From Bactericera cockerelli (taxonomy: Eukaryota > Arthropoda > Insecta > Hemiptera > Triozidae), in the NCBI GenBank assembly GCA_024516035.1, contig CM044956.1:9552878-9616877 (forward strand): a DNA stretch of 64,000 nucleotides, read 5' to 3'. The notes under the pieces are model-generated. The model made no database searches, was not told the DNA's origin, and saw nothing but the letters and a program-made list of their open reading frames with translations. This document shows, piece after piece, positions 570-51,100 of the stretch (positions within the stretch are counted from its first letter, which is position 1; every line of letters starts with the position of its first letter). Made by a program: the position numbers and the translations under genes.

Positions 570-2161
570 GTTCAAAGAGTACATGCTAGTATGAGGTTTA
601 CCTGGATGCCACAATAGCCATAGCCTTGTGTACGATATGGAAGAAGTACATGCTAACATGAGGTTTACAAGGATGCCAGGAAAGCCATAGCTTTGTCTAC
701 TATATGGAAGAAGTACATGCTAGCATGAGGTTTACCTGGATGCCAGGATAGCCATAGCCTTGGCCTCGTCCACCATATGGAAGAAGTACATGCTAGCATG
801 AGGTTTACCTGGATGCCAGGATAGCCATAGCCTCATCCACCATATGGAAGAAGTACATGCTAGCATGAGGTTTACCTGGATGCCAGGATAGCCATAGCCT
901 TGGCCTCGTCCATCATATGGAAGAAGTACATGCTAGCATGAGGTTTACCTGGATGCCAGGATAGCCATAGCCTTGGCCTCGTCCATCATATGGAAGAAGT
1001 ACATGCTAGCATGAGGTTTACCTGGATGCCAGGATAGCCATAGCCTTGGCCTCGTCCACCATATGGAAGAAGTACATGCTAGCATGAGGTTTACCTGGAT
1101 GCCAGGATAGCCATAGCCTCATCCACCATATGGAAGAAGTACATGCTAGCATGAGGTTTACCTGGATGCCAGGATAGCCATAGCCTTGGCCTCGTCCATC
1201 ATATGGAAGAAGTACATGCTAGCATGAGGTTTACCTGGATGCCAGGATAGCCATAGCCTTGGCCTCGTCCACCATATGGAAGAAGTACATGCTAGCATGA
1301 GGTTTACCTGGATGCCAGAATAGCCTTGGCCTCGTCCACCATATGGAAGAAGTACATGCTAGCATGAGGTTTACCTGGATGCCAGAATAGCCTTGGCCTC
1401 GTCCACCATATGGAAGAAGTACATGCTAGCATGAGGTTTACCTGGATGCCAGGATAGCCATAGCCTTGGCCTCGTCCACCATATGGAAGAAGTACATGCT
1501 AGCATGAGGTTTACCTGGATGCCAGGATAGCCATAGCCTTGGTATCGTCCACCATATGGAAGAAGTACATGCTAACATGAGGTTTACCTGGATGCCAGGA
1601 TAGCCATAGCCTTGGCCTCGTCCACCATATGGAAGAAGTACATGCTAGCATGAGGTTTACCTGGATGCCAGGATAGCCATAGCCTTATCGTCGTCCACCA
1701 TATGGAAGAAGTACATGCTAGCATGAGGTTTACCTGGATGCCAGGATAGCCATGGCCTTGGCCTCATCCACCATATGGAAGAAGTACATGCTAGCATGAG
1801 GTTTACCTGGATGCCAGGATAGCCATAGCCTTGGCCTCGTCTAACATATGGAAGAAGTACATGCTAGCATGAGGTTTACCTGGATGCCACGATATCCATT
1901 GCCTTGGCCTCGTCTACCATATGGAAGAAGTACATGCTAGTATGAGGTTTACCTGGATGCCAGGATAGCCATAGCCTTGGCCTCGTCCACCATTTATGGA
2001 AGAAGTACATGCTAGCATGAGGTTTACCTGGATGCCAGGATATCCATAGCCTTGTCTACTATATGGAAGAAGTACATGCTAACATGAGGTTTACAAGAAT
2101 GCCAGAATAGCCATGGCCTCGTCCACCATATGGAAGAAGTACATGCTAGCATGAGGTTTAC
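570..2161 (-). repeat. Exon 24 donor array: 22 copies, 73- or 67-base unit
   Basis: Direct tandem repeat continuing from the 3' end of Piezo exon 24. Each unit contains about 44 exon bases, the donor (minus strand CCAG then gtaaac) and about 29 intron bases. Donor positions step by 73 or 67 (for example 805, 872, 945, 1018, 1091, 1158). The shorter unit lacks six bases, and two different six-base losses occur. Two copies (near 665 and 2091) have lost the CCAG. Nearly every unit could act as a donor. Confidence 0.95.
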
Positions 2162-2318
2162 CTGGATGCCAGGATAGCCATAGCCTTGGCCTCGTCCACC
2201 ATATGGAAGAAGTAGTGGCTGGAGAAGAGCCGCCGCTGCAGGAAGAGGAACATGAAGCAGGCCGCGTCCCAGGCGAGGCCCACCTGTTCCACTGGCACCT
2301 CACACTCCCCCCTCATCT
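2162..2318 (-). CDS. Piezo: Piezo exon 24 of 24 visible
   Basis: 52 residues: EMRGECEVPVEQVGLAWDAA, CFMFLFLQRRLFSSHYFFHM, then VDEAKAMAILASR. The E-x-G-L-A-W-D and L-Q-R-R-x-F-x-S-x-Y-F motifs, ending in I-L-A-S-R, lead directly into the beam helix of Piezo, encoded beyond the left edge. Acceptor ttgcag, donor gtaaac, exit phase 2. Twenty-two more copies of its 3' end and donor fill the next 1.6 kb. Confidence 0.96.
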
Positions 2319-3139
2319 CTGCAACCACACCGGGGGAAAAAAAAATAATAATAAATAAAATAAAATAGCCTTTATTAAAATATTAATTTACAATACAAGT
2401 TATTTACGTACATAGTTATTTCATATTTTATTCAATTTTATATACATATAAAAAATATTTTAATTAATAAAGTGTACTCGTCTAATTGAAGGCCTACACC
2501 GGGAAATAGTGAGTCAAAATCCATTATCATAGGGTGGCGTCATCGTGAACGATGATATGTAAATAGTTGGGTGGAAGAGATTGCCATAGGCAATAACCCC
2601 GCCCTTTAGTTAGGACATAATATGTATATAATTTGTTTATTTTTTTTCTTCATGTTTATATTATTAATATTTAAAGCTTTATTAGGAGGACAAAGTACAA
2701 TGGTAACAGTATAAAATTAAGAAGAAAAAAAAAAAAAAAAAAAAAACAAACAAACAAATGACAAAATAAATAAGTAAAAAAAAGAAAATAACAATAATGT
2801 CCTACCTACTAATAAAGAGTTTCTAAATAAATAAATATGATAGCCTGACAGTGTAGGAATGACTCAGCACTTCTACCACTGTCTCTACAAGGAGGCTAAT
2901 AATTGACAAGGGCACCCAGAACCAAGCCAATGCTGGCCTACTCCCTGTTTATAGTCCCCAGCCAGACTGCTGGTCTACTCACTGTTTATAGTCCCCCAGC
3001 CAAACTGCTGGTCTACTGCCTATTTATAGTCCCCCAGCCAGACAGATTTGGAAGAAAAAAATGTTTTTTAAATTTACTGTAGGTAAATAAAGTTTCATAA
3101 AAATTGTTAAATGATAAACTAGCAAGGTAATTGCACACA

Positions 3140-3173
<34 letters not shown>

Positions 3174-6100
3174 ATGAGACTTTCACAGCCTTTTTTATTT
3201 CGTAGCCATGAAACAGCAGCTACTGTAGACGCATCTGTTCTGTGTTGTAGCTTGCCCGTCCTGTTAAGTTTAGTATGCCTTCCATTTGATGGGCGAGAAG
3301 TGACACAATACTTCCATTTAGGTGCTGTGTCAACACGAGCGCACCGGAAGGTTTCCATTACAAACAACTGTTACCAAATTTTGAACATCTTTTTTGTCGG
3401 CTCTGGAATTCGAACTCGGGACCTTCCGCATGGCAAGCGAGTATCTTACCACTGAGCTAATAATAATAATAATACTTTTCATTAGAAGGTAACCACCAGG
3501 CGAGGTTAATTTTCAAAGCATTTTCTACCACCTAACCCTCAGAGTCTTATTATTATGTGGTCACAAACTCAAATTAATGAGGAAAAATCCATGCACTGCG
3601 TGGGATTCGAACCAACGGATCCCTACGCTACCTGGATTACTAGACTAGCGCGTTAACCACTTGACTACCAGAGCACTAGTGACTACTATAATTCTAGAAA
3701 AAGATCGTTATTTGGTCCACATTTTTTACTTTCTATTTATTGAAGGCCATTTTCCTCGACTACAGGTCATATCTATTGGCATAAGGGGACAACCTGTCTT
3801 TCGCTGACAATCTAAATAAAGGATCCTTACGCTACCTGGATTACTAGACTAGCGCGTTAATCACTTGACTACCAGTGCACAATTTTTTTTTAAATAGTTT
3901 ATTTATTTATTTTCTTTGTAATAATAATAATATCGCCTTATTTATACTGCCCGATTAAGACTACTAAAGTCCCATTATTCCAGCAGTAAGCCCAAGACAT
4001 ATTATTATGTGGTAAAAATCCCAAATGGGACGATAACTTATCATGTCCCGGCTGGGTTTCGAACCCACGACCTCTGGAAATTTTGGATTCACAGAGTGCC
4101 GCCTTTACCACTGAGCTACCGGGACAGTGGCTTAGCTTTGAATGGCTTCTAAGAATCGTGCGCTTACCTTGAGAGGGCGTGAACTTCTGGATGCAGAAGA
4201 TCCCGAAGAGCTGCACCAGCCAGCAGGCGTGCACCTGGATCTCACTCATGAAGATGCAGCCGGGGATCTGCAGGATAGTCTTCATGAGGATCACGAACAC
4301 GTTGTAGCCTATCATGTAGTTCCACCTAAGATGAGATAAGATAAGATTGTTATATTGTGCATTTGATACATAAAGTATGTTCACAACGTCATGACAAAAA
4401 TAGAACAAAATTTATAAAATATAAAAATAATATATAAAAAATTAAAATAAAAATATAAAATTATATAAAATAAAATATAAACTTATATAAAATTTATGTT
4501 TTATGTATTGAAACCTCCGTGGCGTCAAGTCACGGACCGCGCACTGTGCATGATAGGAAAAACCGACGCCCAACAATGACCCGTGATATAGAATTCGTCT
4601 ATCAATTTCGCACTCCATCCCAACAGAGACCACCATAATTGGTCCAACCCGCAACCAACCTCTACCAAGAGACCCTATACCGGTGGGCATAGGTTAATTC
4701 CGGACAAGGGCGTGTTCAAGTTTAAAGTTCGGGAGAAGACGACTCGCATTTACATTTGCATTTTTTATTTAATTAGTAACCCATTCCACCTAACCTCACC
4801 TTCATGAGAATCACAAACACGTTGTACCCTATCATGTAGTTTCACCTGCGGGAGAAGACAACCCGCTGTTACATTTGCATTTTACTTCCGTTAGTTTCTC
4901 TTATTAGAAACGGAAAAATTGTGTTGGTTTTTGTATTTATATTATTAGCTATATTTGCATCTTGCACTACACACTGGACATGGAAGGAGCTCAGACCACG
5001 GGATCCGGGCTTTCAAGGAGTTCAATGCCCATATATCAGTCCTTTCTTTATAAAGAAAAACACCCAGCTCAAGTTCTAAGCTTATTGGGTGTGAATAACT
5101 GATCATTAATTAATTTTATACAACACACATAATACATGTAAATTAGTCAGTCCATAATAATGTAAAACTATACATACTTTAATTACTTTTCTCATTATTA
5201 TCATATTCATCTTTAAAAAATATTTTCTGTAATTAGAGAGAAAGCAAGTAAAAATTATTCACAAACAACTGACATCACTATCGATGCTTGCCATAAGACA
5301 CAGTACTCTTGTTACTTGTGTTTTGAAGTAGAGAATGACGATGGTTATTTTCAGGATGATGGTTTGTACTTATTGTGTGACTGTTAAAATGTTTATTATA
5401 AAATAAAGTTGAAATAAATAAATAAAATAAGGGTTGGGTGGAAGAGATTGCCTCAGGCAATAACCCCACCCTTTAGTTAGGACATATATTATGTCTATAT
5501 TTATTTTTTTTTTCTTTATTTTTTTCTTCTATTATATTGTATATTGTATTTTCATTTGTAATTATGTGTATTGTATATAATATGTCCTATTACCTAATAA
5601 AGTGTAAATAAATAAATAAATAAAAAATGAGTTTGCAACTTACCACCGAAGAATGACGTTGATGGGTCGCAGGTAGAAGTCGTTGCCCTGCCAGAGGAAG
5701 ATGAAGGACCCGACCAGGTAGCCCAGGGAGAAGATGTTAACCCTGTTGGTGCCCGCCAGGAACACAATGGCCAGGGTGAACCACAGGAAGGACTGAAGAA
5801 GCACGCGCTTGCCAATGTCCAGCCACGACCTGAAACACAAGCCACACTATAGTAGTAGAAACCCATGACAAGCCACGACCTGAAACACAAGCCACACTAT
5901 AGTAGGAGCCCATGACAAGCCACGACCTGAAACACAAGCCACACTATAGTAGGAGCCCATGACAAGCCAGGACCTGAAACACAAGCCAGGGAGAAGATGT
6001 TAACCCTGTTGGTGCCCGCCAGGAACACAATGGCCAGGGTGAACCATAGGAAGGATTGCAGAAGCACGCGCTTGCCAATGTCAAGCCAGGACCTGAAACA

Positions 6101-9100: not shown

Positions 9101-12100
9101 CTTGATTTTAATTGAGAAAAAAAAAAACATATTGATTTTTCTCCTTAAATTTACGAAATAATAGACCTCATCGCCGATCAATACTCACAGATAAGCTTGT
9201 AGGCAGACGGTGGCTTGTCAATGTCGGGGAGGTACATCCAGTCCCGAAGCCTCTGCAGCCATTCTGTATCCCACGGGAAATCTGGGAACAACACAAAGAG
9301 AACAAATTGAAGATAATTGTAATAGATAAAAAAAAGCAACAAAAAAAAAAAAACGGTTGATGGTTGATCCAGCATCAAATCACTCAGATTAATACTGTGG
9401 GTCAGGAAGAGCTGGGAATAGTTGTGTGAAACAATTGTCAAAAATGTTGAATGAGATATAATACACTGAAGCTATTTTAATCTGCTGACCAAGGTAGAGA
9501 GCATCATAACAAGCGGAGTAGCTCACGCAGCTACTACAACAGAAACAGAATGAAACAGAGCGCACGATTAGGTCCCGGGTTCGAATCCCAGAGCCGACAG
9601 ATAATTTGTATTCAAAATTTGGTTACAGTTGTTTGTAGGGGATACCTTCCGGTGCACTCGTGTTGACCCAGCACCTAAATGGGAAGTATTGTGTCACTTC
9701 TCGCCCATCAGAGGGGAGGCGTACAACGTGATCGACAAACTACAACAGTACAACATCGACGGTTGTTTGATGGCTAAGAAATAACAGCTATGGGCCATCA
9801 GTATTAATACGATAGTCTGATTGGGGGATGTTAAACAGGCAGAAGACCAGTGTCCCGCTAGAGGACTATAAACAGAGAACAGACTAGCCAACTCTTACAA
9901 GCCAGGCTAGCTTGCAGTTTCCTAAGGGTTTTGGCTTATAAAGAAAAGTCTATGTCCTCATGATGGTTGATCGCACATAGAAATATGTGGTTCAGGACGA
10001 GCCAACTTTGAAATAAAGTTGGCTGGAGACCATCTCTCAACCCTCCAGCTGTAGCTAAGCTGGCTACAACAACAACAACAGTATTAATACGAGGAGACTC
10101 ACGTATACACAGGTCAGGGGGGAGTCCCACCACAAGGTCATACTGCAGGGGGATCACTAGGCGTAGCTTACGTCGCTACTACAACAACAACAACAGGTAT
10201 GAATACTCACGTATACAGTCTGGCTGGGGGACGTTAAACAGGGAGAAGACCAGTGTCTCGCTAGAGGACTATAAGCAGAGAACAGACTAGTCAACCCTTA
10301 CAAGCCAGGCTAGCTTGCCATTTCCTAAGGGTTTAATGGCTTATAAAGAAAAGTCCGAGATCCTCATGATGGTTGATCGCACATAGAAATATGTGGTTCA
10401 GGACGAGCCAACTTTGAAATAAAGTTGGCTGGAGACCATCTCTCAACCCTCCAGCTGAAGCCAAGCTGGCTACAAGAACAACAGTATTAATACGAGGAGA
10501 CTTACGTATACATAAGTCAGGGGGGAGTCCCACCACCAGGGCATACTGCAGGGGGATCACTAGGGGTAGCTTACGTCGCTACTACAACAACAACAGGTAT
10601 GAATACTCACGTATACAGTCTGGCTGGGGGACGTTAAACAGGGAGAAGACCAGTGTCCCGCTAGAGGACCATAAACAGAGAACAGACTAGCCAACCCTTA
10701 CTAGGCTAGCTTGCAGTTTCCTAAGGGTTTAATGGCTTAGAAAGAAAAGTCTATGTCCTCATGATGGTTGATCATACATAGAAATATGTGGTTGAAATAA
10801 AGTTGGCTGGAGACCATCTCTCAACCCTCCAGCTGTAGCCAAGCTGGCTACAACAACAACAATACTCACGTATACACAGGTCAGGCGGTAGTCCCACCAC
10901 CAGGGCGTACTGCAGGGGGATCACTATCACCACGAACACGATGAACACATTCCACACCTTGGCGAGCCTGGCGCGGGACAGCAGGACCAGCACGGACAGC
11001 CAGACGGCGTAGACCATGGCGTAGAAGTCCATGCGCAGGGATATCAGCACCACCACCGCCATGAAGGAGATCTGGGGGGAAAATATAATAACAATAATAT
11101 CGCCTTATTTAAATGGGATATCAGAACTGTTTACGTAATTGCAGCATTATTGTTGCGTGTTAACAGAAAAAAAAAAAAAAAAAAAAAGAACCACTACTGC
11201 CATGAATGAGATCTGGGGGAAAAATATAATAACAATAATATTGCCTTATTTAAATGGGATATCAGAACCACCACTGCCATGAATGAGATCTGAGGGAAAA
11301 TATAATAACAATAATATCGCCTTATTTAAATGGGATATCAGAACCACCACTACCATGAACGAGATCTGGTTATTTAAAATGGGATATCAGCACCACCACT
11401 GCCATGAATGAGATCTGAGGAAAAAATAATAACAATAATATCACCTTATTTAAACAATCTGATTTAAACGGCGTAGAAGTCCATGCGCAGGGATATCAGC
11501 ACCACCACTGCCATGAATGAGATCTGAGGGAAAAATATAATAAGTTATCATATCTGTGTTCAGGGATATCAGCACCACCACCGCCATGAATGAGATCTGA
11601 GGGAAAAATATAATAAGTTATCATATCTGTGTTCAGGGATATCAGCACCACCACCGCCATGAATGAGATCTGAGGGAGAAATATAATAAGTTATCATATC
11701 TGTGTTCAGGGATATCAGCACCACCACCGCCATGAATGAGATCTGAGGAAAAAATAATAAGTTATCATATCTGTGTTCAGGGATATCAGCACCACCACTG
11801 CCATGAATGAGATCTGAGGGAAAAATAATAAGTTATCATATCTGTGTTCAGGGATATCAGCACCACCACTGCCATGAATGAGATCTGAGGAAAATATAAT
11901 AAGTTATCATATCTGTGTTCAGGGATATCAGCACCACCACCGCCATGAATGAGATCTGAGGGAAAAATATAATAAGTTATCAATTATATCAAAAAAATAT
12001 AATTGCGGATAGCATGTGTGACAGGAGAGAAGAGAGCAAAATCATACTTGATGCAACGAATAAGTTTGGCTGTTCAGGTTGGAAATGCGACGAGTGTGTT

Positions 12101-15100
12101 GGGAACCATGAAGAGGACAGCAGATATGGAGATGTTTTATCTATGAGTTAAACGAATTTGTATATTTTATTTTGTAAATGAAAAATATATTTTCATTTTC
12201 TATAAGTTATCATATCTGTGTTCATAACTTTTCTTTCAACCAAATTTAAAGTCGGTCTTTATTTACATTAGGACTACATACATACATAAAAGGAATAAAG
12301 TTTAAAAAAAAAGTTTTCATATTTGTGTTAATCACTTTCGTGATATCACAACTACACAAACTCGCTTTACTAAATCTACGCTGAAACCGGGATATGAACC
12401 ACCGACCTCCAGGTTACTAGTCCACTGCCTTATCGATCAAGCTACTGAGGTCGGTGGAGAAAATATAATAACAATAATATCGCCTTATTTAAACGGTCTG
12501 ATTAGAACTAATATGTTCCATTATTCCAGCAGTAAGCCCAAGACGTATTATTATGTGCTCAAAATGCCACATAGAAGGATAACTGAACATATCCAGCCGG
12601 CTGGGTTTCAAACCTACGACCTCTGAATCTAGGCGGAGTGCACTGGTAGTCAAGTGGTTAACACGCTAGTCTGGTAATCCAGGTCGCGTAGGGATCCGTT
12701 GGTTCGAATCCCACCCAGTGCATGAATTTTTCCTCATTAATTTGAGTTTGTGACCACATAATAAAAAGACTCTGAGGGTTAGGTGGTAGAAAATGCTTTG
12801 AGCATTACTCACCTCAACTCCAAACCGGTAGAAGCCATAGTTGAACAGATACTTGACGCAGTGAAGTACATATGTCTCAGTCCTTGTAAGATACTCGGTT
12901 GTTGTTGTTGTAGCCAGCTTGGCTGGAGGGGTGAGTGACGGTCTCCAGCCAACTTATTTCAAAGTTGGCTCGTCCTGAACCACATATTTCTATGTGCGAT
13001 CAACCATCAAGAGGACTTGGACTTTTCTTTATAAGCCATTAAACCCTTAGGAAACTGCAAACTAGCCTAGCTTGTGAGGGTTGGCTAGTCAGTTCTCTGT
13101 TTATAGTCCTCTAGCGAGACACTGGTCTTCTCCCTGTTTAACGTCTCCCAGCAAGACGAAGATACTCGGTGGAACAGATGAGTTACTCACCTCAACTCCA
13201 AACCGGTAGAAGCCATAGTTGAACAGATACTTGACGCAGTGAAGTATGTCTCGGTCCACCTCCTTGTAAGATACCCGGTCTAATAGATGAGTTACTCACC
13301 TCAACTCCAAACCGGTAGAAGCCATAGTTGAACAGATACTTGACGCAGTGAAGTATGTCTCGGTCCTTGCAAGATACTCGGTGGAACAGATGAGTTACTC
13401 ACCTCAACTCCAAACCGGTAGAAGCCATAGTTGAACAGATACTTGACGCAGTGAAGTATGTCTCGGTCCACCTCCTTGTAAGATACTCGGTGGAACAGAT
13501 GAGTTACTCACCTCAACTCCAAACCGGTAGAAGCCATAGTTGAACAGATACTTGACGCAGTGAAGTATGTCTCGGTCCACCTCCTTGTAAGATACCCGGT
13601 GGAACAGATGAGTTACTCACCTCAACTCCAAACCTGTAGAAGCCATAGTTGAACAGATACTTGACGCAGTGAAGTATGTCTCGGTCCACCTCCTTGTAAG
13701 ATACTCGGTGGAACAGATGAGTTACTCACCTCAACTCCAAACCTGTAGAAGCCATAGTTGAACAGATACTTGACGCAGTGAAGTATGTCTCGGTCCACCT
13801 CCTTGTAAGATACCCGGTGGAACAGATGAGTTACTCACCTCAACTCCAAACCGGTAGAAGCCATAGTTGAACAGATACTTGACGCAGTGAAGTATGTCTC
13901 GGTCCACCTCCTTGTAAGATACTCGGTGGAACAGATGAGTTACTCACCTCAACTCCAAACCGGTAGAAGCCATAGTTGAACAGATACTTGACGCAGTGAA
14001 GTATGTCTCGGTCCACCTCCTTGTAAGATACCCGGTGGAACAGATGAGTTACTCACCTCAACTCCAAACCGGTAGAAGCCATAGTTGAACAGATACTTGA
14101 CGCAGTGAAGTATGTCTTGGTCTTTGTAAGATACTCGGTGGAACAGATGAGTTACTCACCTCAACTCCAAACCGGTAGAAGCCATAGTTGAACAGATACT
14201 TGACGCAGTGAAGTATGTCTCGGTCCACCTCCTTGTAAGATACGCGAGGGAACATGATGTAGGGGCGGGCCAGGGATCTGCCCTTCAGGTGACGCTTGTA
14301 CTTCTGTCGCGTGCACACCACCGTGTTCAGCGTGACCACCATGATCACGGCTGTGGACACGGAGGCAGGGTCAACAATAGTTAGGACATGTATAATTTTG
14401 TTTTTTTGTTTTTCCTTGTTTTTTTTTTTTTAATGTATATTTATTTTATTTTTTCTTTACAATTTTTGTGGCTCTCTCCCTAAGGAATTCTTCTAAGGAG
14501 AATTCTTTAATATTGTCTATTTTTATATTTACCATTATTTGTCTGTATATATGTTTTACCTACTAATAAAGAGTTTCTAAATAAATAAATAAACAATGTC
14601 AATTAGGTATATTGGTTTATTTAAAACTACTATTGGCCGGGTCAAGACTCGACTCCTGGGTCCCAGCTCATGTAGATTTAGCGTCACGTGATCAATTTCC
14701 ACCAATCACAGAGCTCTAAATCGATCACGTGACTTTAACACCCGTACTTATGAACAGCGAATTTTGTCTGAGCACTGTCTCAAGCAAGGTATTGGCCAAT
14801 AATACTAAAGGAAATCACGCTTCAGACATGCTCAAAAGGCGTTTTCTGTTCATAAATACGGCTGTAAATCTACATGAGCTGGGACCCACCAGTCGAGTCT
14901 CGACCCGGCCATGAGTATCATACTGAGTTATCAGTTGATTCGAATCCCACCCAGTGCATGAATTTACATCATTAATTTGAGTTTGTGACCACATGATTAT
15001 AAGACTCTTAGGGTTAGGTGGTAGAAAATGCTTTTTTTTATTTTTATCAAGCTTTATTAGGAGGACAAAGTACAATGGTAACAGTATAAAATTAAGAAAA

Positions 15101-18100
15101 TAAAGAAAGAAAAAAAAAAAAAAACAAATGACAAAATAAATAAGTAAAAAAAAAGAAAATAACAATAATGTCCTACATAAAGGGCGGGGTTATTGCCTGT
15201 GGCAATCTCTTCCACCCAACCTCGCCTGGTGGTTATATTCCACTAAAGAGTGTTATTATTATTAAGATTATATAACACTCATCCATGTGACACGTTATGA
15301 AATAGACTTCAAGGTATAAATTTCGGCGCAAACAACCTAGTAAATGATACCACTGAGTACAACATTTTGTTTCGCAACGTTTCATGCTCACTTTCTAAAG
15401 GATCAAATGAAATCGACCCCACTAACTTCGCAACGCTTTCCTATTTAAAATTCGAGACAAAACATTGCGCTACGTTGCGATACAAAATGTTGCAATCAGT
15501 GGGATCCCAAGCTTTCTTGTAGTTATCATAAAATTAGAAATGCATTCGGCCATAAGTTAGAGGTAAAGAAATTGTATACATGTACAAAAATTCTAACACA
15601 TTTTTAAAGCACCCATAAAAAAAGTGAAGAAAGCAATTCTACACCAAGGAAACAATACTATTTTTTAGACGAGTGTTTGACAGCTTTTTTTATTTCTTAG
15701 CCATGAAAAACGAGCTACTGTAGACCCTTGTGGTCTTTGTTCTAGCTTGCCCATTCCGTAGTATGTCCCCCTCTGACGGGCGAGAAGTGACACAATACTT
15801 CCCATTTAGGGTCTGGGTCAACACGAGCGCACCGCAAGATGTCCCTTACAAACAATTGTAATTTAAGGAGCAAGGACTCTGATTGTTAAGCCTCCTTTGT
15901 AAATAAATATCATTAAAAAAAAAAAAAACAAATACAAATTTTTGTCGGCACGGCGGATCGAACCTGGGACCTTCCGCATGGCAAGCGAGTGCTTAACCAC
16001 TCGGCTAATCGTCCGCTCTACACTACTAGCTGCTACTACTCGCTGCGCATGCGCACTCACCTATGTACCCGCGCAGCAGATGAGCCAGAGTGTTGGAGTC
16101 TGACACCTTGTAGAAACCCAGCCACTCAGCGCTGTTGTAGGTTTTATTCGGGCCAGGCGTGGAATTCTGAATTGAAAGGGGAAAAACCATTACTATTTAT
16201 TTATTTATTTACACTTTACTTATTTTTACAAAACAATCATCAACAAAGAATTACTAACAATAATTTTTTTTTAAAAAAACTAAGAAGTATGTACAAAAAA
16301 ATAATAAAATAATAAAGATCAATAATATTTATTTTATTTTATTAATGTTTATAGACCTTATGGTCCACAAGTGGACATAGTCAATCGTCAATACAATACA
16401 TGAATATAGGATATACAATATACAGGGTGTCCCACCAAAGCCGGTAATAATTGTAATAATTATTGTAATTATTACAATTGTTTTGTAATCCGGGGCGAAG
16501 TTAATGCCTTAGGCATTCTCTGCCACTTTGAAAGAGTTACTCTTTCTTACAATATCAAAGAATGTCGAAAATGTCCGAAAAAAATATTTCAAAGAATCAT
16601 CATCATCATAGGGTGGCGTCATCGTCAACGATGGTAGCCAGACAGTGGAGAAATAACTCAGAACGACAAGGAAAGAATACGATGTCAAAAAAATAGGCTG
16701 CAAAAATGTCTGAACGTCACTCGTATAAGAAAACATGTCTTGCATCTATTTCAAAAATTAAACCAGAACTTTTTTCCGACACTGTACCTTGTACCAGAGG
16801 TAACAAAAACAGGGATTTTTTTTAATTTGGGTTTAATGTCGCACATGGTCACATCACGACGGTGGTATTACCCTCCACTCGCAGGGAACTCACAAATCTA
16901 CTACCCACATTAACCTCAAACAGTCTTGGTTATGCCGAAATGCCAACATCACGAAGTCTTCACCCCACTGGACGTTGCTCAACTTCGACAATGCTACGAG
17001 AACCGGTGTACACAACTCACCATCGACGCTGGGACAGGGATTTCTTTCTCGGTGTCTCTGTGTAGTGTGTACGTACTCTTCTACTTACCGTGCATGTTAC
17101 ATTCCACTCTGCATGCTGGATGTACTCTATCTGGTAGATCATCTTGAGCAGCATGAGCATGCACTCTTCTACTTACCGTGCATGTTACATTCCACTCTGC
17201 ATGCTGGATGTACTCTATCTGGTAGATCTTGAGCAGCATGAGCATGCACTCTTCTACTTACCGTGCATGTTACATTCCACTCTGCATGCTGGATGTACTC
17301 TATCTGGTAGATCATCTTGAGCAGCATGAGCATGCACTCTTCTACTTACCGTGCATGTTACATTCCACTCTGCATGCTGGATATACTCTATCTGGTAGAT
17401 CTTGAGTAGCATGAGCATATACTCTTCTCCCTTTTTTTTAACAAGAATTGTGTTTTATTTGTACATAATTTCATTACATTATTTAGGATAACAAAATATA
17501 ACAAATACATAAGTACTGAAATTTAATAAAATAAAATGATATGAGTATGCACTTATACTACCACACTAAGGTACCTGGAGAACCAGGCACCTTGTTTTGT
17601 AACATGCACTTACCGTGCATGTTACATTCCACTCTGCATGCTGGATGTACTCTATCTGGTAGATCATCTTGAGCAGCATGAGCATGCACTCTTCTACTTA
17701 CCGTGCATGTTACATTCCACTCTGCATGCTGGATGTACCTGCTCTATCTGGTAGATCTTGAGATCTTCTACTTTTTTTTTTTAATTAATTTTTTATTTAA
17801 TAACAGGATAACATAAAGAAAGGTTTTTTTCCTAAGCTAAAGCTCCTAACTTACCGTGCATGTTACATTCCACTCGGCATGCTGGATGTACTCTATCTGG
17901 TAGATCATCTTGAGCAGCATGAGGATGGACACGGTGACGGAGGTGATGTGGATGATGATGTTCTGGAGGCGGGAGGAGAGGGTGGTGGAGATGACGGTGA
18001 GGACGATGAAGCTCATGTGGATGGCGCACACCTGGGCCAGAGGAATAAAAGTTATCATATTAAAAAGGAGTAAATTATCAGTGTAAACAGAATAGTGAGA

Positions 18101-33100: not shown

Positions 33101-36100
33101 ACATGGATTCCGAACTTGCATGATTTCTTTCAGAGTTATTTGTGTCTACGTTTCCTTCAGCTCTTAGGGTTTTTGTAGAAGCTTTTGGATCAACTGTGGT
33201 ATTCAAATGAATAAAGTTAGTAGTATTAACCATTGATGTTCCTTTCTTTTCCGGTACTTTTCGACACTTTGCCAATGTCTTTTCAGATTTTACTCCGGTC
33301 TGTTTCGCTTTGATTCTTTTAACATTTTTCACCAGGTTGCTTTGGTTGTCTGAAACACTTTTTTGTACTTTGTGTTTGGCGTGTATACCTTTTGTTACGA
33401 TGTTTTGCCTTACGATGGCGAGTGTATTTTCTGCAGTTGAATTTGACGCTTTGCTTTTCTTGCGTCCTTCATTTACTTTTCTATTTTTCAATTTTCTATT
33501 GTATTTCTTTTCACACGTTTTCTTCATTTTCACCAGCTCCTCATCTTTAGCTTCACACTGCTCCAGCTCGTTGGACTTCACCTCCAAGTCACAACTTCCC
33601 AATGCTCCGAGACAACTGACATAGATGCTTCCCTCGCCTAGACTATCGTCAGCACTCAGCGATTGCCAACACTGAGCGGACCCACTGGACTGAGGGAACA
33701 GGAGGGGATCACACTTGAGATGAGCGATCGTTGTTTTCTTGTTTCCCGCAATTTTCGCTTTCCCAGGTCGAGATTTTTCTTTTTTGGCAGCGCCAATTAC
33801 GGTAAATTGTTCTTTTTCATCCACAACAGGTTCAGGAACAACAGGGAGTGGCGGCTCGAACTCTTGCTCCTTGTCTATGTACTTCGGTTTCCAATAGTTG
33901 ATGAGGTAGCGCGGTTTCTTACTCTCCGGATCCTCCTCGACACTCAGCCGGATGTTGTACTGTTTGGTGCACCGCTGATCTGTGCTATCCTCAGCGGGGA
34001 GCCAGCGAACTCTCTGCTGTCCGGTTACTATTTGGAAGTCATCCACATTGAACTGGTAGGGCTTGGGAGGAGGGGCCGGGGGGCCTTTCGCTTTCTTTCC
34101 CATTGTGAAACGGGTGGCTTGAGACTGACTTCTAACAGGGTCAGTTAGATACTCATAAATATACAAATCCTTAGTAAATGTTTATTTATGTTGAACAGGT
34201 TTCTTACAAAAATTTTGTTCAGAAGTATTTTTAAATTCATGTTACATTTTCTGTATGTTGTGTTAATCTTTAAATATTTTTTTTAAGTGGCTCGTTTTTA
34301 TCATTTGTGTACACTGTCCATTGATTTTCACACAAAGTAAAAATAAACTATTAACTGTAATCAATTGTTATTTAAAACTCACAGATTCTTTTTCACATAG
34401 AAAGTATGGAAAAAGTCAGGGGGGAGCTAGTGGCAGAGAATGCCTAAAGCATTAACTTCGCCCCGGATTACAAAACAATTGTAATTAAAAATTAATATTG
34501 ATCTTTATTTTATTTATTTTACATACTAAGTTTTTTTTTTAATTTATTGTTATTAATTTTTTGTTGATGTTTGTTTTGTAACAATAAAATTTCAATTATT
34601 AATGCTACGAGTATGAGGATCAGAGGAACTCGGAGAAGAATTCGTGGTGTTGGTTGTGAAGATGGGGCGGGAGTGTTTGACGTTGCCGAGATATGATTGT
34701 AAAGAGTATTTTTATGAAATAATCTCAATATATTCGTTTGAGTAGTTGCTTTCTTACCTTGATGATGAGCGGCACTGTAATAAATTGTTATAACTCACTG
34801 ATTTTTTGCACACAGAAAGTATGGAAAAAGTCAGGGAGCTTTCTTATGGGGTTCGGTGAAAGAGAAAGCCCCAGGCTTTAACCTCGCCCCTTGGCTCACT
34901 ACATATTCTATTGTGTTCTTTTTTTTTCATGTCTTATTTTGTTGAATGTATCATGTAGTTGACCAATAAAGTGTTAAATAATAATAATAATAGTAATACC
35001 TTGATGATGAGCGGCTTGAAGGCGTAGTGGCTCACTTTGTTGAACCCGATCTGGTCGGACTTAGTTTTTTTTGTTTTATTTTTATTTTTTGAATTTATTG
35101 TTATTAATTTTTTTTTGATGATTGTTTTGTAAAAAAATAAAGTGTAAATAAGTAAAAAAAATAAAAATAAGCTTTCTTACCTTGATGATGAGCGGCTTGA
35201 AGGCGTAGTGGCTCACTTTGTTGAATAATAGTAATTAAAAATTAAAATTAATATTGATCTTTATTTTTATTTTACATACTTCTAAGTTTTTTTTTTTAAA
35301 ATTAATTATTGTTATTATTTTTTTGTTGATGATTGTTTTGTAAAAAAAAATAAAGTGTAAAAAAAAAAAAAAAAATATTTTTTTATTTTACATACTTTTT
35401 TTTATTTATTTTTTTAAATTTATTGCTATTCATTTTTTGTTGAATAAATAAAATGAGCTTTCTCACCTTGATGATGAGCGGCTTGAACGCGTAGTGGCTC
35501 ACTTTGTTGAACCCGATCTGGTCGGAGCCGTCTATGTAGGGCAGCTCCTCGTCCCCCAGGTCCATGCCGTAGAGGTACTGGGCAGCGAGCAGGAACTCGG
35601 CATAGAGCACGAGCACGGGCGAGGAGCGCAGCATGGACTTACTTCTAAGTTTTTTTTTTTAATTTATTGTTATAATTTTTTGTTGATGATTGTTTTGTAA
35701 AAAAATAAAGTGTAAATAAATAAAATAAAATGAGCTTTCTTACCTTGATGATGAGCGATTTTACATACTTCTAAGTTTTTTTTAAATTTATTATCAATTT
35801 TTTGTTGATGATTGTTTAGTAAAAAAAATAAAGTGTAAATAAATACATAAATAAATAAATAAATAAAATAAAATGAGCTTTCTTACCTTGATGATGAGCG
35901 ATTTTACATACTTCTAAGTTTTTTTTAATTTATTATTAATTTTTTGTTGATGATTGTTTTGTAAAAAAAATAAAGTGTAAATAAAAAATAAAAATAAATA
36001 AATAAAATAAGCTTTCTCACCTTGATGATGAGCGGCTTGAACGCGTAGTGGCTCACTTTGTTGAACCCGATCTGGTCGGAGCCGTCTATGTAGGGCAGCT

Positions 36101-39100
36101 CCTCGTCCCCCAGGTCCATGCCGTAGAGGTACTGGGCAGCCAGCAGGAACTCGGCATAGAGCACGAGCACGGGCGAGGAGCGGAGCATGGACTGGCGCTG
36201 GTTAGGCATCATCCACAGGAGAGAGGACCAGAGGAGCAGGATGAAGCCCAGCCACGAGTGGTACATGATGCTCCAGGCCTGATCACGAACATAAGGAAAG
36301 AATTAGCATATGAAAAATAAAAGCGCGCGATTAGCTCAGTGGTTAAGCACTCGCTTGCCATGCGGAAGATCCTGGGTTCGATCCCCCGTGCCGACAAAAA
36401 TTTGTATTCTTAATTTGGTTACAATTGTTTGTAAGGGATACCTTCCGGTGCGCTCGTGTTGACCCAGCACCTAAATGGGAAGTATTGTGTCACTTCTCGC
36501 CCTTCAGAGGGAGGCATACTACGGGATGGGCAGGCTACAACACAGACCACAAGCGTCTACAGTAGCTCCTGTTTCATGGCTACGAAATAAAAAAGGCTGT
36601 GAAACACTCATCTTTAAAAAAAAAAAAACATCGAGTATATTCCGAGATCAAGAATAATTTCATCTTCGTGGCTGTCTCTGTAGAAACACTCGGACCTTGG
36701 GCCGAAGAAACAATGGGATTCATAAACAAAGTTGGCAACATTTGTAAACAACATACAGGAGAACCAAAGGCACGAGCATACCTATTCCAAAAAATGTCAC
36801 TTTTAATCCGGAGAGGAAATTGCTCAAGTATTCTGAGTACTTTGCCCTCTGGATTGCAAAGGGCAGAAATATATTATCTGTAATAAAAAAAAATTAATTA
36901 TAAATAACCAATAATTACTATGAAGGTAGTACTATTGTATTAATTCCGTGTTCGTGAGGCACAGATAATAGAAAATTTTATAAGGGCAAAGTTTTATAAG
37001 TAAAGCTATAAGCCCAGAACAAAATTCTGAGGCACCCACAGGAGAGAAGACCAGAGGAGGAGGATGAAGCCCAGCCACGAGTGGTACATGATGCTCCAGG
37101 CCTGGTCACGAACATATGAAGGTAGTACTGTAATATTAATTGCCGTTGAAACTTTCGGATCTTTTGGACCAGATGCCTTGGATCTATTCAATTCTATTTC
37201 CAAGTCTCTGGTGCTTGAAACGAAAGAGAGATGTGCAGGGGAGTACTTCCGAAAAAAAGGAAAAGTGGCATCCGTGTTGAGCACACTGAAGAAAGAATAT
37301 GTTTTTAATGAAATATATTATATCAATTCATATAGGTGTACGATATAATAGAGATGTAATACGATGTAAAATAGAATATATTAATTCAGATTCCGTGTTC
37401 GTGAGGCACAGATACTTATATCACGGTGGTGAGAGGATTATATGGACGACCAGATTCAATGTCTAGGATCCTTTCATGTCCATTAATTTGATTTGGTTTT
37501 AAAATCGTGGTTTGGAGTTATAAAATGTATAAAATACAGTAAAATTGATTCAAGATGGGTTTTTTACCCTCCATTCACTAGGACTCTCGTACCAGCTACC
37601 CACATTAACCTCAACCAGCCCGGGTTGGGCCGGAAAGGCCAGGTAGTTGTAATAGTAATCAACTGCTTCTGATGTATCTTTTGTGATATTTTTTCGGTAA
37701 TACATCGTCTTTCGGGGACCCCTCGTGATGCTGATTCCCGAACCCACTCAGGCTGGATGAGGTTAAGGCAAATTTAGGGTAAAACCCCCGTCGGCGTCGT
37801 GATATAAGTATAAGTAGTGCTTTATTTAGATTGTCAGCGAAAGACAGATAGTCCCCTTATGCCAACAGATATGACCTGTCTTCTTCTTTTACTCTGTCTT
37901 ATCCCGGTTAAGCAGGGTCGACGTTGTTTAACCTCATGGTTGAGGTTGGTTGGTTTTGGCTCATTTTTTTACGGCTGGATGCCCTTCCTAACGCCAACAA
38001 TTCTATTTGATTTAACGTCCTGAATTAGGACAGGGGTTTCACCCTCCATTCACTGGGAATCGTACCAGCTGCCCACATTAACCTCACCCAGCCTGGGTAG
38101 GGCCAGAAATGCCAGCCTCATATGTACGGAGGGAACAGAATTTTCTGTGTAAAAAAACTGCTCCGACCGGGGAACGAACTCAGGATTTCTGGACTACGGG
38201 CAGTAGTCACAACCGTTACGCCACGGAGTCTGGACCTGTAGTTGAGGAAAATGGCCTTAAATAAATAGAAAGTAAAAAATTTGGACCAAATGACCATCTT
38301 TTTTTTCTCGGAATTATTATGTTGGACTTGATTACCATCATGATAATGTTGGTGTCTATGTAGGAGGTTTAAGTTGGACTTGCTTTCCATCATGATAATG
38401 TTGGTGTCTATGTAGGAGGTTTAAGTTGGACTTGCTTACCATCATGATAATGTTGGTGGCTATGTAGGAGGTTTAAGTTGGACTTGCTTACCATCATGAT
38501 AATGTTGGTGTCTATGTAGGAGGTTTAAGTTGGACTTGCTTACCATCATGATAATGTTGGTGGCTATGTAGGAGGTTCAAGTTGGACTTGCTTACCATCA
38601 TGATAATGTTGGTGGCTATGTAGGAGGTTTAAGTTGGACTTGCTTACCATCATGATTATGTTGGTGTCTATGTAGGAGGTTTAAGTTGGACTTGCTTACC
38701 ATCATGATAATGTTGGTGTCTATGTAGGAGGTTTAAGTTGGACTTGCTTACCATCATGATAATGTTGGTGGCTATGTAGGAGGTTTAAGTTGGACTTGCT
38801 TACCATCATGATAATGTTGGTGGCTATGTAGGAGGTGCGGGTGACGAATCTGGAGATGGTGATGATGGCGTCCATGAGATACTCGAATATGCTGACGCCT
38901 GGCAGTGAGCCATCTGGAACAGGCAACAGTGAGCCACCCAGTGAACAATGTCTTGCCATTCCTAACATTGCTTTACATAAATACTAATACAAATTCGTTT
39001 AACTCATAGATAAAACTCCTCCCGCATATCTGCTGTCCTCTTCATTGTTCCCAACACACTCGCCGTATAATATCAATACTAATTTACATATAATATCGCC

Positions 39101-45100: not shown

Positions 45101-48100
45101 AGAGAACTTATAGCTTAAAAAAGCACATTGATAATATATACAATATACATATACAATTATACATACAGTTTAGAATTTTCAGAAATAAAAAAAATACTTG
45201 AAAATAAAATCAAATTTTAAGACAAGAGATAGTCTTATCTTATGTCTTAATATTGATGAAGAAAAAATGTAAATTTAAACAATAATGTCTCCTTCATCTG
45301 AAGAGTATTCTGTATCTGACTTACTTTATGACTGCAAAAAAAATCATCGAGAAATAAAAAAATGATGTTTTTGTGTACCTACAAGAGAAAAGTAGAAAAT
45401 ACAACATTCATTTGAAAAATAAATGCTCTGTACAAAACAAAGACAAATTTTGTAAATAAAACTTGGAAATATGTACAATATCAAGAGAAAATGCTGTAAA
45501 GGAATAATAAAGAAAGTCACATTGTAGATATGAAACTGAAAAGTAGAAAATATATTACATCCCTGTGTGCTACCTACAACAATGACCAAGTTTCTGGTGA
45601 TGGTTTCATGGGTGGTAAACCATGGGAATCCCTTGTAATTTTGAAAGAAAATGCACGGAATTACACTTTCACTAACGGACTGATTTTATCGTGCACCTAA
45701 TTGGCCATTAGCTATTTTATTCTGTACAAAGTTGTTCGTTAAGTTCATGATTAAATATTTCCATTAGCAATAATGCAATTGGGTACCAAACATTAAGGGC
45801 GAAATTAATAGACATGTTTGATTGTTTGCCATACCTCTGTGGATTTAAGTCTACATTTTGCGTATTGTTTTAAATGGAAAAAATGTAAATTCTAACTCGA
45901 ACTTGTGAATACGATTTTGTCTACTAGTTTCACCCTCAGATTAAAATTTATAACGCCACCTATGAAAATTATGGAGAGTATAAAGAGGCATGGCTATCCA
46001 CCAGCGGGGCCATGCCTTCGTTCAATTTACTTTTAAATTTAGTCCCTTAGCGAAACGTTGGTCATTGTGGAGGTGATACAACTAAGACGATTGAAAGAGT
46101 CTGCCAAGTGGATCAGTTATGCTGACACAAGAATAAAATTATTTCTATCAGGTTCTAAAATAGTTTTTTTTTTCGCTTTCAACTGCACGGTTATATCAGA
46201 ACGGGGGTTTTACAATCCATTCGCTGAAAACTCTCAAACCAGCTACTCAAATTAACCTCACCCAGCCTGAATGGAGCAGGAAATAACCAGCATCAAGAGG
46301 GTTCGAATTTGAATAGTCACCCATCCAAGTCCTAACCTCGTTGGACACTGCTTAACATCAGTGACAGAACGAGAACTGGTGTTTTTAACGTTCCATCGAC
46401 AGGCTGGATTTTAAAATCATCATCATAGGGTGGCGTCATTGTGAACGATGGTAGCCAGACAGTGAAGGAATGACCCAACACTTCTACCACTGTCTTTACA
46501 AGGAGGCTAATAATTGACAAGGGCCTCCAGAACCAAGCCAATGCTGGTCGACTCCCTGTTTATAGTCCCCAGCCAGACTTTTAAAATATTTGTATTTTAA
46601 AATATTTGTTTTCTTTTCCAATCATCCTGCGTGATCTCTACGCTGTGAAACAAGCATAGAGGAATAAGTAGTGGAGATGTCATAACGCATATCTCATGGG
46701 TACTGAATCTGTCCCATAACAAACTATCCAATATGGCTACCGTTATTACCTTCAAAAGCATGTAATAAGAAAAATTAATTTGTTAGTGTTGTGATTTCTT
46801 CTGTGTTCCAACTAACCAAGATGGGAGATTTTACGGGACAGGATTGAAACATTACGAATTGAATTGAATAGAATGGTTCTTTTTATTTGTACAATAATAA
46901 TGTTTCCTAATATTATCTCCTAAGCTTATGCAAACTTCTGAGGAGAAGTTTGCATAAGCTTAGGAGATAATATTTTCTTATTTTTATAATGTTTTCGAGT
47001 TCTCCTGTTTTCTCTTACTACTTATCCCTCCATGGAAACAAAGAAGTAAGGTAAATTATAAATGAGAGACGCCACAACACAGACAAAGAGGAAAAACAAA
47101 GAATACATCACACGAGGTTCTACGTTAGGCGATGCAAGGCACACTTCACACGATGCATCGTGTCAACAGTACGCGATGGGAACGCCCTCTGGTGGCTGGT
47201 TGATGAACTACTACTCACACCAATTCTCACTTTTTTCGTGGCCACGCGCCACCGGTTGGTTTTGTTTCGGAACAGAGGGCCGCCCGCGTGGTGACCCTTC
47301 TGCGAGAGACGTTGAGACAGCTGGCGGCTCATGCTACAGGGCGGGTCTTTCTTCAGCTCGTCCTGAGTGAGGGGTTAGTGTGGGTGAAAACAAGTAGTAC
47401 AAAAGGAGACACAGTGGGTTAATACGGTCGACTATGAGTTTAGTATGGTCAAGTAACAAATAGTACAATAGGACACAGTGGGTTCATACGGTCGACTAGG
47501 AGTATAGTATGGTCAAGTAACAAATAGTACAATGGGACACAATGGGTTAATATGGTCAAGTAACAAATAGTACAATGGGATACAATGGGTTAATACGGTC
47601 GACTATGAGTTTGGTACGGTCAAGTAACAAATAGTGTAATAGGACACAATGGGTTAATACGGTCGACTATGAGTTTAGTATGGTCCAGTAACAAATAGTA
47701 CAATTCTACATGTAGTATTTATATGTAGTATTCTACGCTTAGTATATTCTAAATTCTAGAAATCTAGAAGGTATTGATAGACTGTAACCAAAAAAATACC
47801 TATAAGATAAATCCTAATATAAGATATTTATACTTCTGAAACTTATACTTATACTTCCTAATACTTCTGAAAGAGAGCGCGTCACATGATTCATTGGTTT
47901 AAAAGTGAGTGTTTATACCGGTGTCACTTACCACAAGGTTGAGCAAGGAGCCAGACTCAAACCAGAGCACATAGTAGAGGAAGACTAGGACCAGGGGTTC
48001 CGCGAATGAGGGCCACTCGACATCTGAGATGTGGGCCACGCGAGGATCGGCCGTAGCAGAACAGTTGGTCTCTATGAGCGGGGTCAGACCGTAGTACCTG

Positions 48101-51100
48101 TGAAGTGGAGGTATTGGAAATGAGAACAGTTCTCTATGAGCGGGGTCAGACCGTAGTACCTGTGAAGTGGAGGTATTGGAAATGAGAACAGTTGGTCTCT
48201 ATGAGCGGGGTCAGACCGTAGTACCTGTGAAGTGGAAGTATTGGAAATGAGAACAGTTGGTCTCTATGAGCGGGGTCAGACCGTAGTACCTGTGAAGTGG
48301 AGGTATTGGAAATGAGAACAGTTGGTCTCTATGAGCGGGGTCAGACCGTAGTACCTGTGAAGTGGAAATGAGAACAGGTCTCTATGAGCGGGGTCAGACC
48401 GTAGTACCTGTGAAGTGGAGGTATTGGAAATGAGAACAGTTGGTCTCTATGAGCGGGGTCAGACCGTAGTACCTGTGAAGTGGAAATGAGAACAGGTCTC
48501 TATGAGCGGGGTCAGACCGTAGTACCTGTGAAGTGGAAATGAGAACAGGTCTCTATGAGCGGGGTCAGACCGTAGTACATGTGAAATGGAAATGAGAACA
48601 GGTCTCTATGAGCGGGGTCAGACCGTAGTACCTGTAAAGTGGAGGTATTGGAAATGAGAACAGTTCTCTATGAGCGGGCTCAGACCGTAGTACCTGTGAA
48701 GTGGAGGTATCGGAAATGAGAACAGTTGGTCTCTATGAGCGGGGTCAGACCGTAGTACCTGTGAAGTGGAAGTATTGGAAATGAGAACAGTTGGTCTCTA
48801 TGAGTGGGGTCAGACCGTAGTACCTGTGAAGTGGAAGTATTGGAAATGAGAACAGTTGGTCTCTATGAGTGGGGTCAGACCGTAGTACCTGTGAAGTGGA
48901 GGTATCGGAAATGAGAACAGTTGGTCTCTATGAGTGGGGTCAGCCCGTAGTACCTGTGAAGTGGAGGTATCGGAAATGAGAACAGTTCTCTATGGGCGTT
49001 CAGTTGTTCACACCAACTCCGCACTTCTAACTAGCTGGATGAAGGAATTGACTTGAATGAAACTAATAATAATAATATCACCTTATTTATACTGCCCGAT
49101 TAGAACTATTAAGTCCTATTATTCCAGCAGTGAGCCCAAGACAAATTATTATGTGGTAAAAATCCCAAATGGGAGGATAACTTGTCATGTCCCGGCTGGG
49201 TTTCGAACCCTCGACCTCTGGAACCCCTGGATTCACAGAGTGCCACCTTTACCACTGAGCTATTGGGACAACTAACATTTATTTACTATATTTTTACTTT
49301 TGCTTTTTCAATTATTTGTTTTTTTTTTAAACTTTTTTACATCTTTGTACTCTTGTTTTTTCAATTATTTGTTTTTTTTTTTTTTAAACTATAAACAACA
49401 AACTATAAACCCTCGTCAATTATTGGGCTCCTTGTAAAGACAGTGGTTAAAGTGCTGAGTCATTCCTCCACTGTCTGGCTACCATCGTTCACGATGACAC
49501 CACCCTATGATGAATGAGTTCATTGAACAAACTATTGTATTACTTCCGAGAAATTTCTAATATTAGAAATCGGAAGTATTGTGTTCGTTTTTGTAAAAAA
49601 AAAATATTTTTTTGCTCCGATTTTTTTCATATTTCTGGACGTTTCATAACCTTTTGAGCAAATTTGGTTTTGTGTCCGTCTGTCGGTCTGTTAAAACGAT
49701 TCCTTGTAACGCGCAAATCTCGAAAACTACTGGACGGATTTTGATGAAATTTTGCACACATCTAGGAGACATTCTGTAGATGGTCCCATTTTAAATTCAT
49801 TGAATTCGTACTAGCGGTTCTGGGTGAAAGAGACCATGCGCCTGACCACTAACTTTTTACTTAAACGCTTATATCTCGTGAACGGTACACCCGATTTTGA
49901 TGAAATTTTGTATGTATATGCATATAATTATATATGTATATGAGTATTATTATTTTACATAGGTTATTTATATTTATTTTTTAATTAATTATAATTTGAC
50001 TCTGATATTTAAGAAAATCCAAAATTTTGGACAAAAAAGTAAAAAAATAAGGACCACGACTTGCCGATACAGAATTTTTTGTAGAATCTAGAACAGGGGT
50101 CTTCAACCTGTGTCCCGCGGGCCACTTGTGGCCCGCCGAGTCATTTTTGGTGGCCCGCGAGCTCATTCATGTTATTTCCTATTTCTTCCAGCACTAGCTG
50201 GCCAAGATTTTTTTTTTTTTTTTTTTTATGCAAAAGTTACGAGCAGTGACAAATCCGATGGGATTCGAACCCAGGTTTCTAACCTACAAGACTAATGCAT
50301 TGACCAACACTCCCTCCGGATTGCTACAACAAAACTTCAACCCAATATTGTCAAATCGGTGGATGCCATGCAATGCCAACCATCCCATGGAAGACCTAGG
50401 TTCGATCCCTCACAGAGTTGATTATTTTCTAAACAGAAACTGATCAGAGACTCCAGTACAATTTTTTTTCTTCTAGTTTTTGTTTAAAAAAAAGAGTGAA
50501 ACAATTTTCTTTTTAATTTTATTTGTAAAATAAAAATACCAACACTTGTTCCTGAAATTAAAAATAGTTTTCTGAATTAGAATTGTTAGAAAAGATTCGT
50601 TTCATGTTGGCCAAATTATATGTATAGTTATTTTAATTGGCCACATAAAGAATTCAAATTTTTCATTCAAAGTTATTTTAACTCCAACAAACATCACAAC
50701 ACAACAAAATTAAGAGTATACCCAAGAACTACATTAATAAGTTACACTGATTGTCAAAATTTTCGTTGCTGACACTGCTGTTCAAAATTTTCCTTGCTGA
50801 TGTTCAAAATTCTACTTGCTGATCAAAATTTTCCTTGCTGATGTTCAAAATTATATTTGCTGATGATGAAAATTCTTCTTGTGATGTTCCAAATTCAACT
50901 TGCTGATGTTCTCAATTCAACTTGCTGATCAAAATTTTCCTTGCTGATGTTCAAAATTCTACGTGCTGATACTCAAAATTCTACTTGCTCATGTTCGAAA
51001 TTCTACGTGTTGATGTTCAAAATTCCACGTGCTGATGTTCAAAATTCTACGTGCTGATGCTCAAAATTCTCCTTGCTGATGTTCAAAATTCTACGTGCAG

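What the first reader, a model, noticed from the sequence alone, without database searches (positions are those of the whole stretch)
570..48985. Tandem arrays anchored on splice junctions of one gene
About half of the 24 visible Piezo exons have a tandem duplication that spans one splice junction: donors of exons 8, 9, 11, 12, 13, 16, 18, 19, 24 and acceptors of exons 5, 9, 10, 19, 22, 23. Copy number runs from 1 to about 36, and each unit includes exon end, splice site and flanking intron. Unit lengths and sequences are unrelated between exons. Only two clear arrays in the gene (47372 and the one inside the hAT-like element) lack exon sequence. Random intron slippage should rarely involve exons, so something may favour repeat birth at exon-intron borders, or selection tolerates only this kind of exon-touching duplication. 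I know of no described system like it.
Basis: partly seen in the sequence, partly recalled or inferred. Interest (0 to 1): 0.92.

Follow-up and report, generated by a model that had tools for sequence, protein, structure and literature searches.

The report
Splice junctions repeated in psyllid introns
In a psyllid insect, about half of the Piezo exons seen here, and a good part of the myosin and dynein exons sampled, have tandem copies of one of their own splice junctions in the neighbouring intron, which makes natural sets of competing, nearly identical splice sites.

Summary
The window holds 24 exons of a psyllid Piezo gene. The window's genome is held (565 Mb). The same anatomy appears at 13 of 31 myosin and dynein exons by eye and at 4 of 11 Piezo exon regions left of the window. 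Nine of 18 window arrays end inside an exon; shifted exon maps give 1.6 (3 of 10000 shifts reach 9). In the other genes it is 9 of 27 against 4.2 (P 0.011). A per-base test and a plain containment test (P 0.13) are negative.

Recent paralogues differ in junction copies. The copies decay like neutral DNA, and GC content does not explain the bias. Best reading: small tandem duplications arise more often where they touch an exon; those crossing a junction are harmless and grow like minisatellites. The cause is unknown. Single junction-crossing cases are in print; I saw no genome-wide one.

The parts
578..2214 (-). Array at the donor of visible exon 24 (exon 2318-2162); 73-bp unit, 23 copies, exon end plus 5' splice site plus intron start
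4800..4847 (-). Single copy of the start of visible exon 23 (AG plus 46 nt) in the intron upstream
   Evidence: 48 bp, 91.7% identity
5723..7900 (-). Array at the acceptor of visible exon 22 (exon 5829-5644); 47-bp basic unit with longer nested units, 35 copies of the acceptor
9814..10861 (-). Array at the donor of visible exon 19 (exon 11071-10870); 403-bp unit, 2.7 copies, part of the unit also occurs at other loci
11176..11982 (-). Copies of the acceptor of visible exon 19; spacings mostly about 50 to 77 bp
13159..14259 (-). Array at the donor of visible exon 18 (exon 14350-14160); 109-bp unit, 10 copies, a further copy near 12.8 kb
17075..17720 (-). Copies of the donor of visible exon 16 (exon 18031-17855); 88-bp unit, 6 extra copies
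24590..24740 (-). Copies of the end of visible exon 13 (exon 24908-24765) and its donor (approximate limits)
27292..27351 (-). Two-copy array at the donor of visible exon 12 (exon 27480-27332); 29-bp unit
28483..29178 (-). Two longer copies of the end of visible exon 11 (exon 29793-29597) with its donor
31091..31996 (-). Array at the acceptor of visible exon 10 (exon 31164-31044); 106-bp unit, 8 copies
34750..36034 (-). Copies of the donor of visible exon 9 (exon 36278-36021), interleaved with A/T-rich sequence (approximate lower limit)
37033..37116 (-). Copy of the acceptor and start of visible exon 9, 823 bp upstream
38317..38836 (-). Array at the donor of visible exon 8 (exon 38913-38804); 52-bp unit, 10 copies
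47219..47362 (-). Visible exon 6; the intronic array 47389-47704 stops 26 bp before its acceptor
48058..48987 (-). Array at the acceptor of visible exon 5 (exon 48097-47932); 65-bp unit, 15 copies

Best explanation
In this psyllid, small local tandem duplications (tens to hundreds of bases) start several times more often where they touch an exon than in deep introns. An event inside an exon changes the protein and is lost. An event that crosses a junction leaves one intact junction next to the exon body and puts every extra copy into the intron, so it does no harm. The new pair then grows, shrinks and homogenises like any minisatellite. Splicing ignores the copies because the exon-side junction pairs best across the exon (exon definition). 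Shown: the anatomy, the excess per array, copy-number differences at junctions between recent paralogues, neutral decay of the copies. Inferred: that the bias lies in birth rather than survival, the break-and-fill-in type of origin, and exon definition. Why exon DNA is prone is unknown.
For: 15 of 15 named junctions have copies. 9 of 18 arrays end in an exon against 1.6 by shifts; 9 of 27 against 4.2 in other genes, 8 of 22 against 3.35, P 0.007, without three loci where repeated matches were visible before fetching. Of the 12 window arrays whose unit was not found at other loci held, 10 carry a junction. Paralogues, about 10 junctions compared, 4 differ: acceptor 3 copies against 1 (L036/L035, collinear intron 97.6% identical), donor 6 against 1 (L035/L036), donor 3 against 1 (L031/L034), acceptor 3 against 1 (L031/L032). 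Copies' 5' splice sites differ at 11 of 366 cells, exon cells at 86 of 3131, P 0.74. The exon-side junctions match Cacopsylla Piezo: 1132 of 1244 residues identical, no gap within 5 residues of the 11 exon-exon joints that involve 14 of the 15 junctions. Short matches at breakpoints and one 5-base filler, by eye, suit break repair; fill-in by Pol alpha-primase is described in PMC8355091 (abstract).
Against: The per-base test and the containment test (P 0.13) are negative. The test in other genes is moderate. The end-of-array rule was set after looking. In paralogues the direction is not proven: an array can also shrink back to one copy. No RNA data. GC content and CpG depletion do not explain why exons would be prone. 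Junction arrays have more copies than random single-locus arrays (median 7.65 of 12 against 2.5 of 21, P 0.015), which a pure birth bias does not predict. A first, cruder count of decoys gave 5' sites 2 of 228 against exon 90 of 2978, a hint of conservation that the fuller count did not keep.
Confidence: 0.5

Rival explanations
1. Survival, not birth: tandem duplications arise evenly, but intron DNA turns over quickly by insertion and deletion, while the exon-side unit cannot be lost, so an array anchored on an exon keeps a permanent seed and is seen more often.
For: Junction arrays have more copies than random ones. Divergence shows no general polarity from the exon, and some far copies equal the functional one, so copy similarity says little about age.
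Against: Paralogues with 97.6% identical collinear intron already differ in junction copies, though by gain or by loss. Two-copy events at junctions exist (visible donor 12; L040 donor). Survival alone would need a five- to sevenfold difference (9 or 12 arrays against 1.7 expected).
Confidence: 0.28
2. Selection for spare splice sites: extra junction copies help recognition of exons among long, repeat-rich introns and are kept for that.
For: Most copies keep GT or AG. Unit lengths divisible by three are lacking in the window (0 of 10 units compared, against 12 of 33 random arrays, P 0.04, post hoc), which hints that splicing sees the copies; it is 2 of 9.
Against: Splice-site columns of copies change as fast as others: 5' sites 11 of 366 against exon 86 of 3131; AG 4 of 84 against 87 of 1616 (14 arrays).
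Confidence: 0.08
3. Assembly artefact: haplotypes or collapsed reads wrongly laid in tandem, as curators report for Diaphorina citri, where falsely duplicated exons were read as alternative exons.
For: Passages in PMC11659978 and PMC9933525 put local tandem duplications in Diaphorina citri assemblies down to heterogeneous or pooled insects. This assembly may hold uncollapsed haplotypes too (C4).
Against: Units are 29-403 bp with up to 35 extra copies that differ by several percent. The same type occurs on seven contigs besides C2. A 38-bp unit in three copies beside a one-copy paralogue does not look like a haplotype join.
Confidence: 0.07
4. Sequence composition: exons are rich in G and C, and tandem duplication favours such DNA.
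For: Exons 57% GC, introns 37%.
Against: 33 arrays in 140 kb of random DNA have the GC of their flanks (0.382 against 0.381, P 0.78); 12% of arrays and 11% of windows have GC of 0.5 or more.
Confidence: 0.05

Closest known systems
Human interferon-induced 6-16 gene minisatellite with multiple splice donor sites (Turri et al. 1995)
   Same: A minisatellite at an exon end whose units each carry a donor (content recalled; only the title was seen, in a reference list; the paper is not held).
   Different: One gene, one donor; here several genes, donors and acceptors, unrelated units.
Tandem genomic duplication across the intron-exon boundary in the potato RdRp gene (PMC4974935)
   Same: A duplication crosses an acceptor and carries its branch site, pyrimidine tract and AG (abstract and results section read).
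   Different: One case, two copies, and it produced a new intron with the extra exon piece kept in the mRNA; here the copies appear to be ignored.
Internal tandem repeats at exon-intron boundaries in human segmental duplications (PMC2812944)
   Same: Variable tandem repeats at exon-intron boundaries, 27 intron modifications after curation (passages read).
   Different: Limited to recent segmental duplications, and they change the transcript; no excess at junctions is stated in the passages I saw.
Small tandem duplications made at breaks with 3' overhangs by CST and Pol alpha-primase (PMC8355091)
   Same: A small tandem duplication as outcome (abstract read).
   Different: Explains the event, not a preference for exons.

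Membership tests
Minisatellite grown from a local tandem duplication | Head-to-tail units of tens of bases or more, from local sequence, variable copy number | tested here: met
   units of 10 of the 12 junction-carrying window arrays were not found at other loci held
Minisatellite grown from a local tandem duplication | Length differences between related loci | tested here: met
   Paralogue pairs differ in copy number; alleles not available
Splice-junction minisatellite (6-16 gene type) | Each unit carries the letters of a splice site | tested here: met
   5' site cells 97% and AG cells 95% unchanged in the copies (14 arrays)
Splice-junction minisatellite (6-16 gene type) | Several of the repeated sites are used | not testable with these tools
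   No RNA-seq; a related psyllid's protein fits the exon-side site
[quoted passage not shown]
   The spliced model aligns to Cacopsylla Piezo without extra residues within 5 residues of the 11 joints tested; mRNA of this species not seen
Mutually exclusive exon duplication | Whole exon with both splice sites in each copy | tested here: not met
   The copies aligned hold one junction and part of the exon; whole-exon clusters of a myosin gene at L033 and L041 were set apart
Introner or other mobile element | Same sequence inserted at many unrelated sites | tested here: not met
   Units differ between exons; 10 of 12 not found at other loci held

The most novel reading that the evidence does not exclude
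A germline process in this psyllid, coupled to transcription, to the splicing machinery or to exon chromatin, makes staggered breaks or replication restarts at exon DNA, so that exon borders across the genome are hot spots for tandem duplication.
Probability: 0.25. Interest if true: 0.9.

Novelty: new variant of a known kind. Interest (0 to 1): 0.7.

Why it matters
If general, this genome holds many natural copies of the classic duplicated-splice-site experiment (recalled), with competing sites nearly identical in sequence: RNA-seq could show directly which copy is chosen, and so separate exon definition from order of transcription and from distance. It also points to an unknown bias in where tandem duplications start, and it warns that duplicated exons dismissed as assembly errors in psyllid genomes may in part be real.

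Tried and rejected
A per-base test of junction windows against intron windows was negative; arrays amplify intron bases, so I moved to a test per array, chosen. There the end-of-array rule was significant and plain containment was not (8 of 18, P 0.13). GC content was rejected as driver, CpG depletion likewise (exon and intron both 0.71). Growth outwards from the exon was not general: 2 of 10 arrays had P below 0.05, in opposite directions. Selection on copies was not seen in 14 arrays; three more loci given to that call dropped out with 0 or 1 copy found, and it used 6 of 35 copies of visible acceptor 22. Whole-exon clusters (L033, part of L041) were set aside as alternative exons by their anatomy. 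Weak copies at L032 and L045 are not counted. Ten literature searches listed no paper on genome-wide junction arrays in psyllids, judged from titles and abstract openings.

Full report
What it is. The window lies on the plus strand of contig C2 of a held genome of 565 Mb in 1032 contigs. The gene is Piezo on the minus strand. A 1250-residue model matches solved Piezo channels (best E 7e-264). The closest protein found is Piezo of the psyllid Cacopsylla melanoneura, 87% identical over the whole query; of three relatives of the nested reading frame 34103-32361 the only one with an organism name is also from that species. The genome is therefore a psyllid, or very near one; three published relatives have 13 chromosomes and 588-656 Mb (PMC12203342, abstract and passages). 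The species was not determined; by recall the potato psyllid would fit the size. The first exon lies outside the window (about 78.8 kb in window numbering), and exons continue at least 34 kb beyond the left edge.

The observation. The 24 visible exons are all bounded by GT and AG and read without a stop for 1298 residues. Tandem Repeats Finder gives 18 arrays with period of 20 or more and score of 80 or more. Alignments show exon end, splice site and flanking intron in the copies, with up to 35 extra copies. None of the 18 arrays lies wholly inside an exon.

More than chance. In 9 of 18 arrays the array ends inside an exon within one unit of the junction, with the exon body outside. Circular shifts of the exon map give a mean of 1.60; 3 of 10000 reach 9, all three with shifts under 60 bp (with 23 exons, mean 1.53 and P 0.0004). 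A model with one unit per array placed at random expects 1.7, P(9 or more) 5e-6. The rule was set after looking at the arrays. Of the 12 window arrays whose unit was not found at other loci held, 10 carry a junction, one stops 26 bp before one (47389) and one is intronic (43798). Against this, arrays that merely contain a junction are 8 of 18, null 5.8, P 0.13, and the share of junction windows with a local copy, 12 of 44, is no higher than that of intron windows, 1259 of 3955, though higher than in random DNA, 300 of 4709.

Other genes. I took myosin-head exons (77 matches) and dynein exons (68 matches) and fetched stretches around 40 of these 145 matches, 35 and 5. Of 27 arrays in 82.9 kb, 9 overlap an exon edge partly, against 4.2 by shifts, P 0.011; without the loci with repeated ranges (L033, L036, L041) it is 8 of 22 against 3.35, P 0.007. 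Exon limits here are those of the profile matches. Read by eye, 13 junctions on 13 of 31 exons have clear copies (L025, L028, L030, two exons of L031, L035, L036, L038, L039, L040, L042, L044, L048), leaving out 9 of the 40 matches as alternative exons or partial copies. In the part of Piezo left of the window, 4 of 11 matched exon regions, near -19.6, -25.0, -30.1 and -34.1 kb, have copies of their starts upstream.

Recent change. Two pairs of myosin paralogues were compared, about 10 junctions; 4 differ. L035 and L036 share 669 bp of collinear intron at 97.6%; L036 has three copies of an acceptor unit where L035 has one, and L035 has six copies of a donor unit where L036 has one. L031 has three copies of a donor unit where L034 has one, and three copies of a 38-bp acceptor unit (26 bp intron, 12 bp exon) where L032 has one. 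I read these as gains, but an array may also shrink back to one copy.

How it works. The copies behave neutrally: 5' splice sites of copies differ at 11 of 366 cells, exon cells at 86 of 3131; AG at 4 of 84, exon cells at 87 of 1616 (14 arrays); intron cells vary more (8 of 199 at donors, 44 of 316 at acceptors). A tandem duplication that crosses a junction leaves a working junction on the exon side, so it is harmless if splicing picks that one. The Cacopsylla protein, 1132 of 1244 residues identical, has no gap within five residues of the 11 exon-exon joints that involve 14 of the 15 junctions; the donor of visible exon 24 lies at the end of the model and was not tested. This fits use of the exon-side junction. 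For acceptor arrays that site is the last one transcribed, for donor arrays the first, so order of transcription alone cannot explain the choice; pairing across the exon (exon definition) can. This step is inferred. Origin by break repair is suggested by short matches at breakpoints and one 5-base filler (by eye), and by the known fill-in route (PMC8355091, abstract).

Why exons? Arrays in random DNA have the GC of their flanks (0.382 against 0.381), CpG observed/expected is 0.71 in both exons and introns, and divergence does not rise in general with distance from the exon. None of these explains the bias; its cause is open.

Known relatives. Single junction-crossing cases are known: the 6-16 gene minisatellite (title seen; content recalled), the potato RdRp gene and human internal tandem repeats in segmental duplications. 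Curators of Diaphorina citri have treated local duplications, including duplicated exons, as assembly errors (passages). What is new here is the number and spread of such arrays and the excess of arrays that end in exons.

Noticed in passing
window junction arrays: None of 10 junction units compared has a length divisible by three, against 12 of 33 arrays in random DNA (P 0.04, post hoc; two further window units, 49 and 143 bp, were left out and are not divisible either; 2 of 9 are). It may mean that frame-keeping units are selected against.
   Followed up: partly
34103-32361 (minus): Intronless reading frame of 581 residues nested in a Piezo intron, with partial relatives in Cacopsylla melanoneura and in two unnamed sequence sets.
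   Followed up: partly
2931-3043, 50775-53019: Two minisatellite families, of 38 bp and 22 bp, whose units occur at other loci of the genome.
   Followed up: partly
L022:4835-5311: A 118-bp array of 4 copies in random DNA whose unit holds a donor-like CAG/GTGAGG; possibly another junction array in an unrecognised gene.
   Followed up: no
L033, L041: Clusters of whole-exon copies in a myosin gene on C11 that look like mutually exclusive exons.
   Followed up: no
G000:C3:29000149, C3:29218078, C7:36755087: Myosin-head matches in very long open frames of 1211-1357 residues, which suggests intron-poor myosin genes.
   Followed up: no
G000:C4:19844665-19848074 and C4:20490194-20493604: Dynein matches with identical scores about 645 kb apart, either a very recent duplication or uncollapsed haplotypes in the assembly.
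   Followed up: no
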